Virus record (IMG/VR): IMGVR_UViG_3300000929_000256
Location: 1 to 48,099 of that record
DNA: 48,099 bases
From: a virus
Direction: 5' to 3' (one strand)
Shown one piece after another: positions 35,619 to 39,642 of the stretch (positions are counted from its first letter, which is position 1; every line of letters starts with the position of its first letter). The position numbers were made by a program, and so were the translations under genes. Under the pieces are notes generated by a model that was given only the letters and a program-made list of their open reading frames with translations, had not been told where the DNA came from and did no database searches.

Positions 35619-36911
35619 TTAGTTTATTTTTTTAGAGTTTATCACCTCGGTCTTATCAAACTTGGCGAACTTCTCGCTATATTTACCCTCTCTAAAAATA
35701 CCACCCGACATAGTACCTTTAAAAACACTGTCGGTTCCAAATACATAGCAGTTATTTAGAGTGCAACTGTTATGAGTGTAGCATGATTGAACCTTTGACC
35801 CATCAACCTGAGTCGACTGGTAAAGATTACTTCGCTGAATATCAGATCCATTAATTTGGCATCTGTAAAAATCGCTTAAGATTGCTTCGCCTCTAAACTT
35901 GCAATCTACGAATTCATAACCCTCCAAACCATGGGCTCCTAAGAAAACACCATCTTTAACCTGAACCCTTGAACGATCAGTGTCGTAGTTAATATGACCC
36001 TCTGTCATTCCGCCCTCTGAAATAAGTTTTACAACTTGGGTTTTAATGTTAGACCAGAACATGTCAATCGTTTCACCGTGGTTCTGAAGATCAAGAGTAA
36101 AATCAATCTTTTGAAAATTCTTAAAGTTACGATGATCCTTGTAAAGGTCGTAAATCTTTTTCATGTTTGACATGATTCTTCTTAACTCAAGGCGATTAAG
36201 CTCTGTTAAATCAGGATTCTTACATGTGTTCCAGAGTTGAATTAGAAAACTGTCAAGTAAATGAAGAATTGTTGAAGTCTTCTTTTCATAATCTTTACCG
36301 CCCAGGTATCTAAATTCTAGGTACCCTTTCTCCTGTTTTAAGAAGTTAACACCATAATACTTGGTGTCTGGATATTTAAACTGCATTTTAGAGATGTGAT
36401 TTTCATCAAAGTTAAACAGCTCATTCTTAGGCAGAACGTACTTGATTGACTTGGCGTAAACAAGATCTCTACGTTCAGGAAAGTGTTTATACACCTGTTC
36501 TTCTTTAAAGTCCAAGATGAACTTTAAAGTGTTCATGTGAGTGATAAAGTTTGAACCCACAATCTTTTTGTCAAACGATACATTAAGGTGAATACCCGCT
36601 CTATCAGTAGTGTGACCGTTTTCCGAGATCCAATGTAACATCTTAATGATGATCAGTCTGGCATCAGGATACGGCAATGCACCAGTCACCATCTCAATGA
36701 GACCGGCACCACCTGACATATCAGGCTCCAACTTAAACACCTTATCGGACGGTTGAAAATCTGAGTGAGCCTTTTCTTCTACCTGAATCTTACGACCCAG
36801 ATATTCACCGACCATCTCAGCTGTTTTTTCAACACTGTGATTCGAGTAAAACTCAAATTCAATGCCGCAAAATGAATGAAGGAGTATATCCTTGTTTGCT
36901 TCGTTTAACAT
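35619..36911 (-). CDS. Amidoligase-like (GCS/glutamine-synthetase fold) enzyme fused to pentapeptide-repeat-like C-terminus, 430 aa
   Basis: The N-terminal 210 residues show the ordered signature of the amidoligase/COOH-NH2 ligase family: GIEFEF (16-21), LEPDMSGG then EMVTGALPY (61-81), DRAGIHLNVSF (103-113) and LEFRYLGG (198-205). The acidic residues and His would bind Mg-ATP and the carboxylate. A charged helical region (210-320) follows. Residues about 340-415 show A/F/C-x-x-x pentad periodicity (CKFRGEAILSDFYRCQINGSDIQ), consistent with a pentapeptide-repeat-like beta helix. Such enzymes form peptide or amide bonds; substrate unknown. It stands alone between S1-like and baseplate genes, under its own GATATATA box. 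No leader or export signal is seen. Confidence 0.7.
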   Translation of the reverse strand: MLNEANKDILLHSFCGIEFEFYSNHSVEKTAEMVGEYLGRKIQVEEKAHSDFQPSDKVFKLEPDMSGGAGLIEMVTGALPYPDARLIIIKMLHWISENGHTTDRAGIHLNVSFDKKIVGSNFITHMNTLKFILDFKEEQVYKHFPERRDLVYAKSIKYVLPKNELFNFDENHISKMQFKYPDTKYYGVNFLKQEKGYLEFRYLGGKDYEKKTSTILHLLDSFLIQLWNTCKNPDLTELNRLELRRIMSNMKKIYDLYKDHRNFKNFQKIDFTLDLQNHGETIDMFWSNIKTQVVKLISEGGMTEGHINYDTDRSRVQVKDGVFLGAHGLEGYEFVDCKFRGEAILSDFYRCQINGSDIQRSNLYQSTQVDGSKVQSCYTHNSCTLNNCYVFGTDSVFKGTMSGGIFREGKYSEKFAKFDKTEVINSKKIN

Positions 36912-36940
36912 GCAGTAGACACTATCTTACTATTTAAGTT

Positions 36941-36949
36941 TATATATCT
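36941..36949 (-). promoter_or_regulatory. Putative late promoter AGATATATA before the amidoligase-like gene
   Basis: A GATATATA octamer about 29 nt upstream of the ATG at 36911, on the far side of the hairpin ending the S1-like unit. Confidence 0.45.
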
Positions 36950-36951
36950 AC

Positions 36952-37029
36952 CGCACCGGGTAGCGGTTTAGACACAAGCTCAGTTACCGAAATAACTGAG
37001 CTTGTAACTAAGTAGTAATTAAGTAGTAA
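36952..37029 (-). repeat. 3' region of the S1-like gene: perfect 13-bp hairpin, small GC hairpin and tandem 11-mer
   Basis: The 125-nt gap between the S1-like and amidoligase-like genes holds an 11-nt tandem direct repeat (37008-37018 and 37019-37029, core TAAGTAGTAA). It also holds a perfect 13-bp stem with a 6-nt loop (36974-37005) and a smaller CCGC/GCGG hairpin near 36952-36966. No U-run follows the large stem on the minus strand, so it is not a standard intrinsic terminator; transcript-end protection or protein binding are alternatives. Confidence 0.6.
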
Positions 37030-37036
37030 CTAAGAA

Positions 37037-38383
37037 TTATGCACCGATAACTCTCAAGAATACTTTCTTGGTATCTTCATCAACCTTAGTAACCTCTACT
37101 ACAATTTCCTGACCCTTTTGGAAAGTGTCTCTCAATACTGTACCTTCTGGGAACTCAGAGATGTGTGCCATACCTACCACTGAACCGTGAACGGCGATGA
37201 ATAAACCGTAATCTTTAATTGATCTGATGGTAGCGTTTTCAACCAGCGTCGGTAACTTTAAACCTTTAGTGAATTCTTCCCATGAGTTATCAACCTTCAT
37301 CTCAGACTTTTCCTTTTGAGTCAAGATGATCTTTTCGTTACTGACAATTTCTTTGATTTTGAAGGTAACTTCATCACCAGGATTTACAGTACCATTTTTG
37401 TGAGAATTGAATAACTCAGGTGATAGGTCATTAACGTGAATCATACCCGTCAAACATGTATTAAATTCAACGAATACACCGTATTTTGCAGTACCTGTTA
37501 CGTTACCTTTAATTTCAGAATCGATATTAGCTTGTAGGTTTTCAATTTCTCTAGGAATCATTGCCTGTAAGTATTTTCGGTGAGAAACCACGATTGTACC
37601 TCTCTTAGACGAGAATGAATCAGGTACCACGTACATCTGAGCACCGACAATTGAACTAAAGTCATGCAGTTTATTAATACCAGCAAGTGAACCAGGCATA
37701 AAACATTGGATACCTTGAACGAGTACAAGGTAACCTCCACCCGGGATCATCTCTTTAATAGTACCTAGGTATGCTGTATCTCCATCGTCAGCTGCTTGTC
37801 TAAGTTCTGCAAACACCTTTTGTTTAGTTCCTTCAGTGATAGAAGCAACTGCGTATTCTCTAACGTCAGTTTTATCACTTAAAACTTTTACAGCAACTTC
37901 GTCTCCAGGTCTAACGTCTGCAATAACGTCTCTATCTTCTCTTGACAAATCAATGTACAACATTTCACGATAATTAATATCGACTGTTGCCCATTTTTCA
38001 CTCATCGAGTGGATTCTTCCAACTTCAACAGCACCTACGGTTAATTCAGAGATACCGTCGTCAAATTGAACGGTAGACAATAAATTATACATTTCTTGAG
38101 CATAAGGCTCGTGACAGTACACCACGTCTTTGTGGGAACCTGTCTTAATCTTAGTGTTGGGTTTGAGTTTTCGGTTGTAATAAGACTCGTATCTGTCCCA
38201 ATCAAATTCTCCAGTTGGAGTTAAGAATTCGTCTGTAGATGAATCAAATTCATCAAGGTTGACTTCTACCTCTTCTTTTTCAACTTCAGTTACCTCTACT
38301 TTAATTTGTTTTTTGTTAGAGTTTTCTTGAAGTCTTCTTCGCTTTTGAGTACCATTATTGGTACCGTTGTTTTGATTTGTCAT
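37037..38383 (-). CDS. Phage-encoded ribosomal protein S1-like RNA-binding protein with four S1 domains, 448 aa
   Basis: After a polar, charged N-terminal extension (1-110, including KRRR), four S1/OB repeats can be seen at about 114-183, 203-270, 289-357 and 381-447. The last two are canonical (GTAKYGVFVEFNTCLTGMIHVNDLS; IRSIKDYGLFIAVHGSVVGMAHISEF). The arrangement and length resemble shortened bacterial bS1, which delivers mRNA to the 30S subunit. In a host that rarely uses Shine-Dalgarno pairing, such a protein could steer ribosomes to phage mRNAs. Other RNA-binding roles are possible. The start lies in A-rich sequence (AACATAAATG) with no Shine-Dalgarno. It sits inside the baseplate gene cluster. 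Confidence 0.85.
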   Translation of the reverse strand: MTNQNNGTNNGTQKRRRLQENSNKKQIKVEVTEVEKEEVEVNLDEFDSSTDEFLTPTGEFDWDRYESYYNRKLKPNTKIKTGSHKDVVYCHEPYAQEMYNLLSTVQFDDGISELTVGAVEVGRIHSMSEKWATVDINYREMLYIDLSREDRDVIADVRPGDEVAVKVLSDKTDVREYAVASITEGTKQKVFAELRQAADDGDTAYLGTIKEMIPGGGYLVLVQGIQCFMPGSLAGINKLHDFSSIVGAQMYVVPDSFSSKRGTIVVSHRKYLQAMIPREIENLQANIDSEIKGNVTGTAKYGVFVEFNTCLTGMIHVNDLSPELFNSHKNGTVNPGDEVTFKIKEIVSNEKIILTQKEKSEMKVDNSWEEFTKGLKLPTLVENATIRSIKDYGLFIAVHGSVVGMAHISEFPEGTVLRDTFQKGQEIVVEVTKVDEDTKKVFLRVIGA

Positions 38384-38423
38384 TTATGTTTAATTTAAAG
38401 GTGTAAAATACTAATTATATAAC

Positions 38424-38888
38424 TCACTTCTTTTTATAGCGGTCGTCTCCCTTGACAATAGCACCTGCAACAGCCCTATCAACTGCTTTTCCAAGCGCTT
38501 GCATAAGAGTTAGTGTGAGAGCATGGGATAAATTTGCTACGTTATTAATACCGTCGGCTTTTGCCTTTTCATTCGCGGCTTGAATGTCGGGATTATTGTC
38601 TTTGGTTTTCGTCTTTTTAATCGTATCCATGCCGAAGGCAGATGAAATAGCCTTGTACCAATCGAGAGGAGCGTCGCCGTAGATAGGGTTGGCCTTTAGT
38701 TGTTCCCTATACAATTTATCTCTGTCAGTGGTCTTTTTAGGATTAGGTTGTGATCCGCCTCCTTTTTGGCCGCCTCCACCGCCTCCACCGCCAGTATTTG
38801 CAGCGTTATCGGTGTTCATGTTATTGCCACCGCCGCCATCGGTTGCATTTCCGACTCCCGTGTTGTTTGTATCTTTACCGTCAGCCAT
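38424..38888 (-). CDS. Gly/Asn-rich protein next to the spike gene, 154 aa
   Basis: Residues 1-55 are low complexity (Gly, Asn, Asp, with a run of eight Gly). The second half is a helical domain (LDWYKAISSAFGMDTIKK, then LSHALTLTLMQALGKAVDRAVAGAIV). It starts directly after the gp5-like gene. No family recognised; a spike- or hub-associated protein is inferred from position. Confidence 0.55.
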   Translation of the reverse strand: MADGKDTNNTGVGNATDGGGGNNMNTDNAANTGGGGGGGGQKGGGSQPNPKKTTDRDKLYREQLKANPIYGDAPLDWYKAISSAFGMDTIKKTKTKDNNPDIQAANEKAKADGINNVANLSHALTLTLMQALGKAVDRAVAGAIVKGDDRYKKK

Positions 38889-38889
38889 C

Positions 38890-39642
38890 TTAGTTAACTT
38901 TTACCTTTGTTGATTTGGTAGGTGGAATCTTAGCAGCAATAACGGGAATTGAAGAAGTCAAATTCGTAGCCGCAGTTGCAGCTGCTGTAGCAGCGGTCCC
39001 CAACGGCACTGCAAGCGGAGCAGCACTCAAAATAGGAAGTGAGGCTGCCGCAACACCTGCCGATGCGAGAGCTGTCATGTTTGTTGATAGATTGGTTAGA
39101 TCAATTGCTAGCTTTTGCAACGTGTTCTTAATTTCGTTAAGGGCATCTTCATTTTTATCACCTAACACGGCAGGTTCTTCTGAACCTCCACCCATTCCAA
39201 CGAGATGCAATAGATCAGCGGCCTGAAATAGGCCTTCACCGGCTGAACCAATCAACTTAACACCCTCTGATGAGTTCCAATACAGTTGCATTCTCGATGG
39301 GTCATAGAAAAGTGAGACCACTCCCATTGCACCATTCGCAGATACCATGTCTGAAACTTCTTGACGTGCCTTAGCCTGAAAGAAATAAACTGGAGTGTAT
39401 AAGTTTCCGTTATCAAATCTAACAGAAACAATGTCACCTACGGCTGGAACCGCAAATTGACCATGTGAATCATTAGAACCGCAAAGGGCCCATGGAAGAT
39501 CTTCATCAGGAATTAGATCAAACTTACCAAAAATGCGTATCCTACAACGGCCCTGATTTGATGGATCTTCGTTATTAACGATTTCTCCTAACCAGTGCGA
39601 ATCTCTTAAATTATCTTGAAAAAGCTCTTTAATAGAGTCCAT
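38890..39642 (-). CDS. 5: Baseplate central spike base, gp5 OB-fold type, 250 aa
   Basis: Residues about 15-105 carry the gp5/VgrG OB-fold signature (WLGEIVNNEDPSNQGRCRIRIFG, LPWAL, PAVGDIVSVRFDNG-x2-TPVYFF). In T4, gp5 has OB, lysozyme and beta-helix domains. Here no lysozyme domain follows; the C-terminal part is a helical then Ala-rich stretch (180-245). The spike would thus rely on another protein for membrane piercing or wall digestion. It overlaps the preceding hub-associated gene by 1 nt. Confidence 0.8.
   Translation of the reverse strand: MDSIKELFQDNLRDSHWLGEIVNNEDPSNQGRCRIRIFGKFDLIPDEDLPWALCGSNDSHGQFAVPAVGDIVSVRFDNGNLYTPVYFFQAKARQEVSDMVSANGAMGVVSLFYDPSRMQLYWNSSEGVKLIGSAGEGLFQAADLLHLVGMGGGSEEPAVLGDKNEDALNEIKNTLQKLAIDLTNLSTNMTALASAGVAAASLPILSAAPLAVPLGTAATAAATAATNLTSSIPVIAAKIPPTKSTKVKVN

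What the first reader, a model, noticed from the sequence alone, without database searches (positions are those of the whole stretch)
37037..38383. Phage-encoded four-domain S1-like protein inside the baseplate cluster
Four S1 repeats with the last two canonical is a layout close to a ribosomal bS1. Most gene starts in the window lack Shine-Dalgarno sequences, so a virus-made S1 could recruit ribosomes to A/U-rich phage leaders. Its position within late structural genes suggests action during bulk virion protein synthesis.
Basis: partly seen in the sequence, partly recalled or inferred. Interest (0 to 1): 0.75.

Follow-up and report, generated by a model that had tools for sequence, protein, structure and literature searches.

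The report
Huge-phage copy of ribosomal protein S1
This virus of bacteria carries its own divergent, four-domain version of ribosomal protein S1, probably used to steer the host's ribosomes to viral messages that lack the usual ribosome-binding signal; such phage S1 proteins and this idea were already published for huge phages, but the gene's docking features and promoter-like signal described here sharpen it.

Summary
The gene is real: 37037-38383 (-), 448 aa, four predicted OB/S1 domains. It is a true homologue of ribosomal bS1, not of PNPase/RNase/Tex-type S1 proteins. Domain 2 is the bS1-specific OB2, domains 3-4 keep the RNA-binding residues, and several bS1 residues that contact uS2 or mRNA are retained. 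An N-terminal FxWxxY/F peptide is shared with all five Bacteroidales bS1 tested and with none of 39 other bacterial ones. Gene starts in the window lack SD sequences (chance level) but have A-rich leaders, a Bacteroidota-type pattern, so missing SDs alone do not prove S1 hijacking. The baseplate position is constant in the window's clade but not in mahaphages or Lak phages. A GATATATA-type, probably late-promoter element precedes the gene and several structural genes. Most likely it docks on the host 30S and helps load A-rich phage mRNAs late in infection (inferred). Al-Shayeb et al. 2020 already proposed this for huge phages. So: a new member of a known kind with useful new detail.

The parts
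37037..38383 (-). phage bS1 homologue, 448 aa, four OB/S1 domains
38330..38344 (-). KRRRL (aa 14-18): basic motif in the disordered N-terminal tail; [KR]RxR[LIV] in 24 of 41 family representatives (0.05 expected by shuffling)
38186..38209 (-). EFDWDRYE (aa 59-66): N-terminal peptide shared with Bacteroidales bS1 (DFNWEEFE-type)
38096..38104 (-). YAQ (aa 94-96) in the helix before OB1; aligned with E. coli bS1 F5-A6-Q7, where F5 and Q7 contact uS2
37841..38029 (-). OB1 (aa 119-181); R139 aligned with E. coli K43, which enters the uS2 pocket
37583..37771 (-). OB2 (aa 205-267), bS1-specific type with CFMPGSLAG (FLPGS in E. coli)
37319..37513 (-). OB3 (aa 291-355), canonical S1 fold; aromatic pair and His kept
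37049..37249 (-). OB4 (aa 379-445), canonical S1 fold; RNA-binding residues kept
38414..38421 (-). TATATAAT, form of a GATATATA element that lies 26-57 nt upstream of S1 in the window's clade; candidate late promoter
38384..38423 (.). 40-nt intergenic leader region before S1, A/T-rich, no SD
36912..37036 (-). intergenic region after S1 with two strong hairpins (z -5.4) and a GATATATAA element 28-30 nt before the next gene
35619..36911 (-). next gene, Amidoligase_2-like with pentapeptide region; S1 lies upstream of it in 76 of 76 testable related contigs
38424..39642 (-). preceding genes: Gly-rich 154-aa protein and gp5/Phage_base_V-like baseplate protein

Best explanation
The gene encodes a phage-lineage bS1 that docks on the host 30S subunit beside uS2, through its N-terminal peptide, pre-OB1 helix and OB1, in place of or alongside host bS1. 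It uses OB2-OB4 to hold A-rich, SD-less phage leaders at the mRNA platform and so favours translation of phage mRNAs, mainly late ones in the window's clade. SHOWN computationally: bS1 homology, OB order, retained docking and RNA-binding residues, A-rich leaders without SD, and strict conservation of the gene next to its neighbour in the clade. INFERRED: host phylum Bacteroidota, 30S binding, late expression, and preference for phage mRNA.
For: bS1 models align collinearly over OB1-OB4 (TIGR00717 positions 10-342). OB2 type in domain 2. Foldseek top hits are bS1 on 30S complexes. Residues that D'Urso et al. discuss as contacts: F5 position Y in 34/41, D39 as D in 34/41, K43 position R/K in 39/41, F120 position Y/F in 41/41, F130 F in 41/41. 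OB3/OB4 aromatic pair, His and basic residue mostly kept. N-terminal FxWxxY peptide in 31/41 phage representatives and 5/5 Bacteroidales but 0/39 other bacterial bS1. SD at chance and A at -16..-8 of 48% against 33% in the window; T4 control 59% SD. GATATATA 59x (window) and 36x (relatives) enriched in intergenic DNA, about 25-29 nt before starts, like T4 TATAAATA. bS21, a bS1 neighbour on the 30S, is encoded in 9 of 14 S1-bearing phage records. F. johnsoniae bS1 raised initiation about 2-fold on one SD-less mRNA (PMC9976891).
Against: K117 of the OB2 pocket is lost and OB1 is weakly conserved. The score is far below the rpsA equivalog cut-off (at best 148 against 577 bits in relatives; 121 for the window protein). 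Lak members lack OB4. Ten of 41 representatives lack the FxW peptide. SD loss is also expected from the host alone. No host, expression or ribosome-binding data exist here, and phage and host mRNAs may look alike to S1.
Confidence: 0.6

Rival explanations
1. It binds the 30S but mainly acts against the host: it displaces host bS1 and shuts down host translation rather than selecting phage mRNA.
For: Docking residues kept; only four domains, versus six in Bacteroidales bS1.
Against: OB3/OB4 RNA-binding residues are also kept, which a pure blocker would not need; phage leaders have the same SD-less A-rich type and would suffer too.
Confidence: 0.14
2. It works off the ribosome as an RNA chaperone, antitermination or mRNA-stability factor, or RNase cofactor (as host S1 does for T4 RegB or Qbeta replicase).
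For: OB1, the ribosome anchor, is the least conserved domain; Lak members lack OB4; in Lak S1 lies near RNA ligase, tRNA-His guanylyltransferase and helicase genes.
Against: bS1-specific OB2 and anchor residues kept; Bacteroidota-type N-terminal peptide shared with host bS1.
Confidence: 0.15
3. It is a virion (baseplate or tail) protein, or is packaged and injected with the genome.
For: Always within the baseplate cluster in the window's clade (76 of 76 testable contigs) and preceded by the same element as structural genes.
Against: In 634-735 kb phages and Lak phages the gene lies away from this cluster, about 48 kb or more from the amidoligase gene where that is present; no structural-protein family match.
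Confidence: 0.08

Closest known systems
Possible rpS1 proteins of huge phages (Al-Shayeb et al. 2020, PMC7162821)
   Same: The closest records found are huge-phage genomes, one of 735,411 bp matching the size of that study's largest genome; same proposal: phage S1, few SD sequences, role in initiation.
   Different: That paper called true rpS1 status hard to confirm. Here the OB2 type, docking residues, Bacteroidota N-terminal peptide, family tree, synteny and promoter-like element are added.
Bacterial ribosomal protein bS1 (rpsA)
   Same: OB1-OB4 order, OB2 FLPGS/FMPGS motif, RNA-binding residues, several uS2 contacts.
   Different: About 22-29% identity; lacks OB5-OB6 relative to six-domain bS1; below the rpsA equivalog cut-off; separate 100/100 clade.
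Phage bS21 of Bacteroidetes phages (Chen et al. 2022, PMC9723584)
   Same: Phage-borne 30S platform protein linked to late structural genes in predicted Bacteroidetes phages; bS21 is present in 9 of 14 S1-bearing records.
   Different: A different protein; none in this 49-kb record, and in sampled relatives bS21 lies about 20-24 kb from S1, beyond this contig's end.
bS1 of Microcystis phage PhiMa05/MaAM05 (PMC13157829)
   Same: Phage-encoded bS1.
   Different: Groups with bacterial bS1, on a long branch, not with this family; separate acquisition.

Membership tests
Ribosomal protein bS1 (rpsA) | bS1-specific OB2 domain in second position | tested here: met
   48.8 bits for OB2 against at most 4.8 for other bS1 domains; 42-56 bits in most representatives against a maximum of 34 for non-OB2 bacterial domains, 24-32 in mahaphages
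Ribosomal protein bS1 (rpsA) | 4-6 tandem OB domains collinear with bS1 | tested here: met
   TIGR00717 aligned 10-342 in relatives; AF2 model with four OB units
Ribosomal protein bS1 (rpsA) | curated rpsA equivalog score | tested here: not met
   at most 148 bits in relatives against cut-off 577; 121 bits for the window protein; so it is not filed as rpsA
Ribosomal protein bS1 (rpsA) | uS2 docking residues | tested here: inconclusive
   F5, D39 and K43 positions mostly kept; F9 unaligned; F79 variable
Ribosomal protein bS1 (rpsA) | association with the 30S subunit | not testable with these tools
   needs biochemistry
Huge-phage rpS1 family | same clade as S1 of the sequenced huge phages | tested here: met
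   41 phage representatives monophyletic, 100/100
Non-ribosomal S1 proteins (PNPase, RNase R, Tex) | closer match to these, with their catalytic domains | tested here: not met
   PNPase model 50 bits on S1 parts only against 129 for bS1

The most novel reading that the evidence does not exclude
An old, phage-specific branch of bS1 has been kept in Bacteroidota-infecting phages, and many of these also carry their own bS21. Together the two rebuild the mRNA platform of the host 30S, anchored partly by a Bacteroidota-type N-terminal peptide, giving virus-specialised ribosomes for SD-less late mRNAs driven by GATATATA promoters.
Probability: 0.3. Interest if true: 0.75.

Novelty: new member of a known kind. 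Interest (0 to 1): 0.45.

Why it matters
How Bacteroidota ribosomes choose SD-less mRNAs is open, and bS1 reading of A-rich leaders is a standing speculation (PMC6847099). A widespread, independently evolved phage bS1 with retained docking features gives a natural variant to test both that question and whether viruses build specialised ribosomes.

Tried and rejected
Donor phylogeny: unresolved, long branch; a phage + Bacteroidales grouping is not rejected (AU p 0.27). Virion-protein reading from position: not upheld outside the clade. bS21 in this record: none. Rfam and tRNA searches of the window: nothing. Flavobacterial bS1 could not be obtained with the available scans, so the N-terminal peptide was tested on Bacteroidales only.

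Full report
OBSERVATION. The ORF at 37037-38383 (-) is intact, 448 aa. The window is a 49.4-kb linear virus record from IMG/VR. Pfam S1 hits two stretches; NCBIfam bS1 models reach 129 bits while PNPase, GSP13-type and RNase R models score 50, 59-69 and 23; phmmer's best solved chains are E. coli bS1, E about 2e-32. AlphaFold2 shows four OB units after a disordered first 49 residues; Foldseek's best hit is bS1 in a 30S mRNA-delivery complex (E 2.4e-23), ahead of RNase and PNPase-type hits (E above 1e-4). The closest viral models include entries already named '30S ribosomal protein S1' or 'S1 motif domain-containing protein'.

WHICH S1 DOMAINS. HMMs for the six bS1 domains were built from 21 bS1 sequences (20 bacterial, 1 cyanophage). 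Window domain 2 matches OB2 only (48.8 bits, others at most 4.8); domains 3 and 4 match OB3-OB6 about equally; domain 1 is weak (OB1 12.6, OB6 15.8). In most of 41 family representatives domain 2 is OB2 with 42-56 bits, above any non-OB2 bacterial domain (maximum 34); mahaphage members are lower, 24-32 bits. This makes a bS1 ancestor much more likely than an assembly of generic S1 domains.

DOCKING AND RNA-BINDING RESIDUES. D'Urso et al. 2023 (PMC10123108) list E. coli bS1 contacts: F5, Q7, F9, E10, K43 and F79 with uS2, and K117, F120 and F130 near mRNA. In 41 phage representatives the F5 column is Tyr in 34, D39 is Asp in 34, K43 is Arg/Lys in 39, F120 is Tyr/Phe in 41 and F130 Phe in 41; K117 is mostly lost and F79 varies. 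Over OB1 as a whole only 41% of phage cells keep the bacterial residue class, against 95% at K43 (rank 6 of 75 positions). The aromatic pair, His and basic residue of the S1 RNA site are kept in most members in OB3 and OB4 (residue identities recalled from the PNPase S1 literature). The alignment of the pre-OB1 helix is the least certain part.

N-TERMINAL PEPTIDE. EFDWDRYE (aa 59-66) resembles DFNWEEFE at residue 12 of bS1 in all five Bacteroidales tested. The pattern F[DNM]W[DEASTI]x[YFH] occurs in 31 of 41 phage representatives, 5 of 5 Bacteroidales and 0 of 39 other bacterial bS1 (shuffled rate 0.0005). It is shared by the window's clade and Lak phages (recorded host Prevotella) but absent from L015-type phages, the 462-kb phage and mahaphages. 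It may be a Bacteroidota docking element; this is inference, and flavobacterial bS1 was not available.

FAMILY AND TREE. Relatives in the annotated phage collection are chiefly huge phages: 462, 635, 636, 642 and 735 kb records and 15 Lak phages of about 545 kb; most of the weaker hits are short or unannotated records whose S1 matches bacterial bS1 better. The phage proteins form one group (100/100) on a long branch outside the 20 bacterial bS1 sequences; joining them to Bacteroidales is not rejected (AU p 0.27). Prevotella bS1 is 37-47% identical to bS1 of several other phyla, the phage protein about 22-29% to any of them: an old, fast-evolving branch, not a recent host gene.

SHINE-DALGARNO AND LEADERS. 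Window: 4 of 41 starts with GGAG/GAGG/AGGA (3.9 expected by shuffling). A at -16..-8 is 0.48 against 0.33 at internal in-frame ATGs and random in-frame positions (no resample as high). Controls: T4 59% SD; crAss001, a Bacteroides phage that gave no S1 hit, 26% SD with equally A-rich leaders; huge phages 0-8% SD. F. johnsoniae and relatives naturally lack SD and use A-rich leaders, possibly read by bS1 (PMC6847099; PMC9976891). So the leader type fits a Bacteroidota host and does not by itself show that the phage needs its own S1.

POSITION AND EXPRESSION. In relatives down to about 36% identity S1 sits between the gp5/V-like gene and an amidoligase/pentapeptide gene; in 76 of 76 contigs that hold the upstream DNA, S1 is upstream of the amidoligase gene (70 within 700 nt). 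In the 634-735 kb phages the amidoligase gene exists but about 48 kb or more from S1, and in Lak phages S1 lies near helicase, RNA ligase and tRNA-His guanylyltransferase genes. Hence not a baseplate part by necessity. A GATATATA-type element lies upstream of S1 throughout the window's clade (the window's own copy reads TTATATAAT). GATATATA is enriched 59-fold (window) and 36-fold (relatives) in intergenic DNA at a median 25-29 nt before starts, strand-specific; T4's TATAAATA behaves the same way in T4 (23-fold, 27 nt); a control 8-mer is not enriched. I read it as the late promoter of this lineage; late expression of S1 follows by inference.

PARTNER. bS21, which touches bS1 OB1 in E. coli, is encoded in 9 of 14 S1-bearing records searched, about 20-24 kb upstream of S1 in five fragments of the window's wider clade; the present record ends about 11 kb upstream, so absence here is uninformative. 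Phage bS21 has been linked to late-stage replication (PMC9723584).

COMPARISON WITH KNOWN WORK. Al-Shayeb et al. 2020 reported S1 proteins in huge phages, their correlation with missing SD sequences, and a role in initiation. The finding is therefore a member of a known kind. What is added here: OB2 identity, residue-level docking evidence, the Bacteroidota-type N-terminal peptide, monophyly, clade-wide synteny, the promoter-like element, and the caution that host phylum can explain the SD correlation.

Noticed in passing
window - strand, e.g. 44722, 36948, 34774, 23654, 8945, 13415: GATATATA element about 9-37 nt before structural genes (about 300 nt before one), none on the + strand; probable late promoter of this phage lineage.
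   Followed up: partly
36912-37036: Two strong RNA hairpins between S1 and the amidoligase gene (z -5.4), no U-tract; possible transcript end or processing site.
   Followed up: no
35619-36911: Amidoligase_2-like protein with pentapeptide region, strongly conserved (A3 mean column identity 61%), also present in 634-735 kb phages; role unknown.
   Followed up: partly
L134:1480-1491: The bS21 gene of the 735-kb phage has a strong SD (AAAGGAGG) although this phage group otherwise lacks SDs, as host rpsU genes of Flavobacteriales do; possibly copied autoregulation.
   Followed up: no
L031: A Lak-type phage S1 on a 3.4-kb contig binned as an uncultured Clostridium MAG; probably phage contamination of the bin.
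   Followed up: partly
38330-38344: Basic KRxR[LI] motif near the disordered N-terminus, in 24 of 41 representatives against 0.05 expected.
   Followed up: partly
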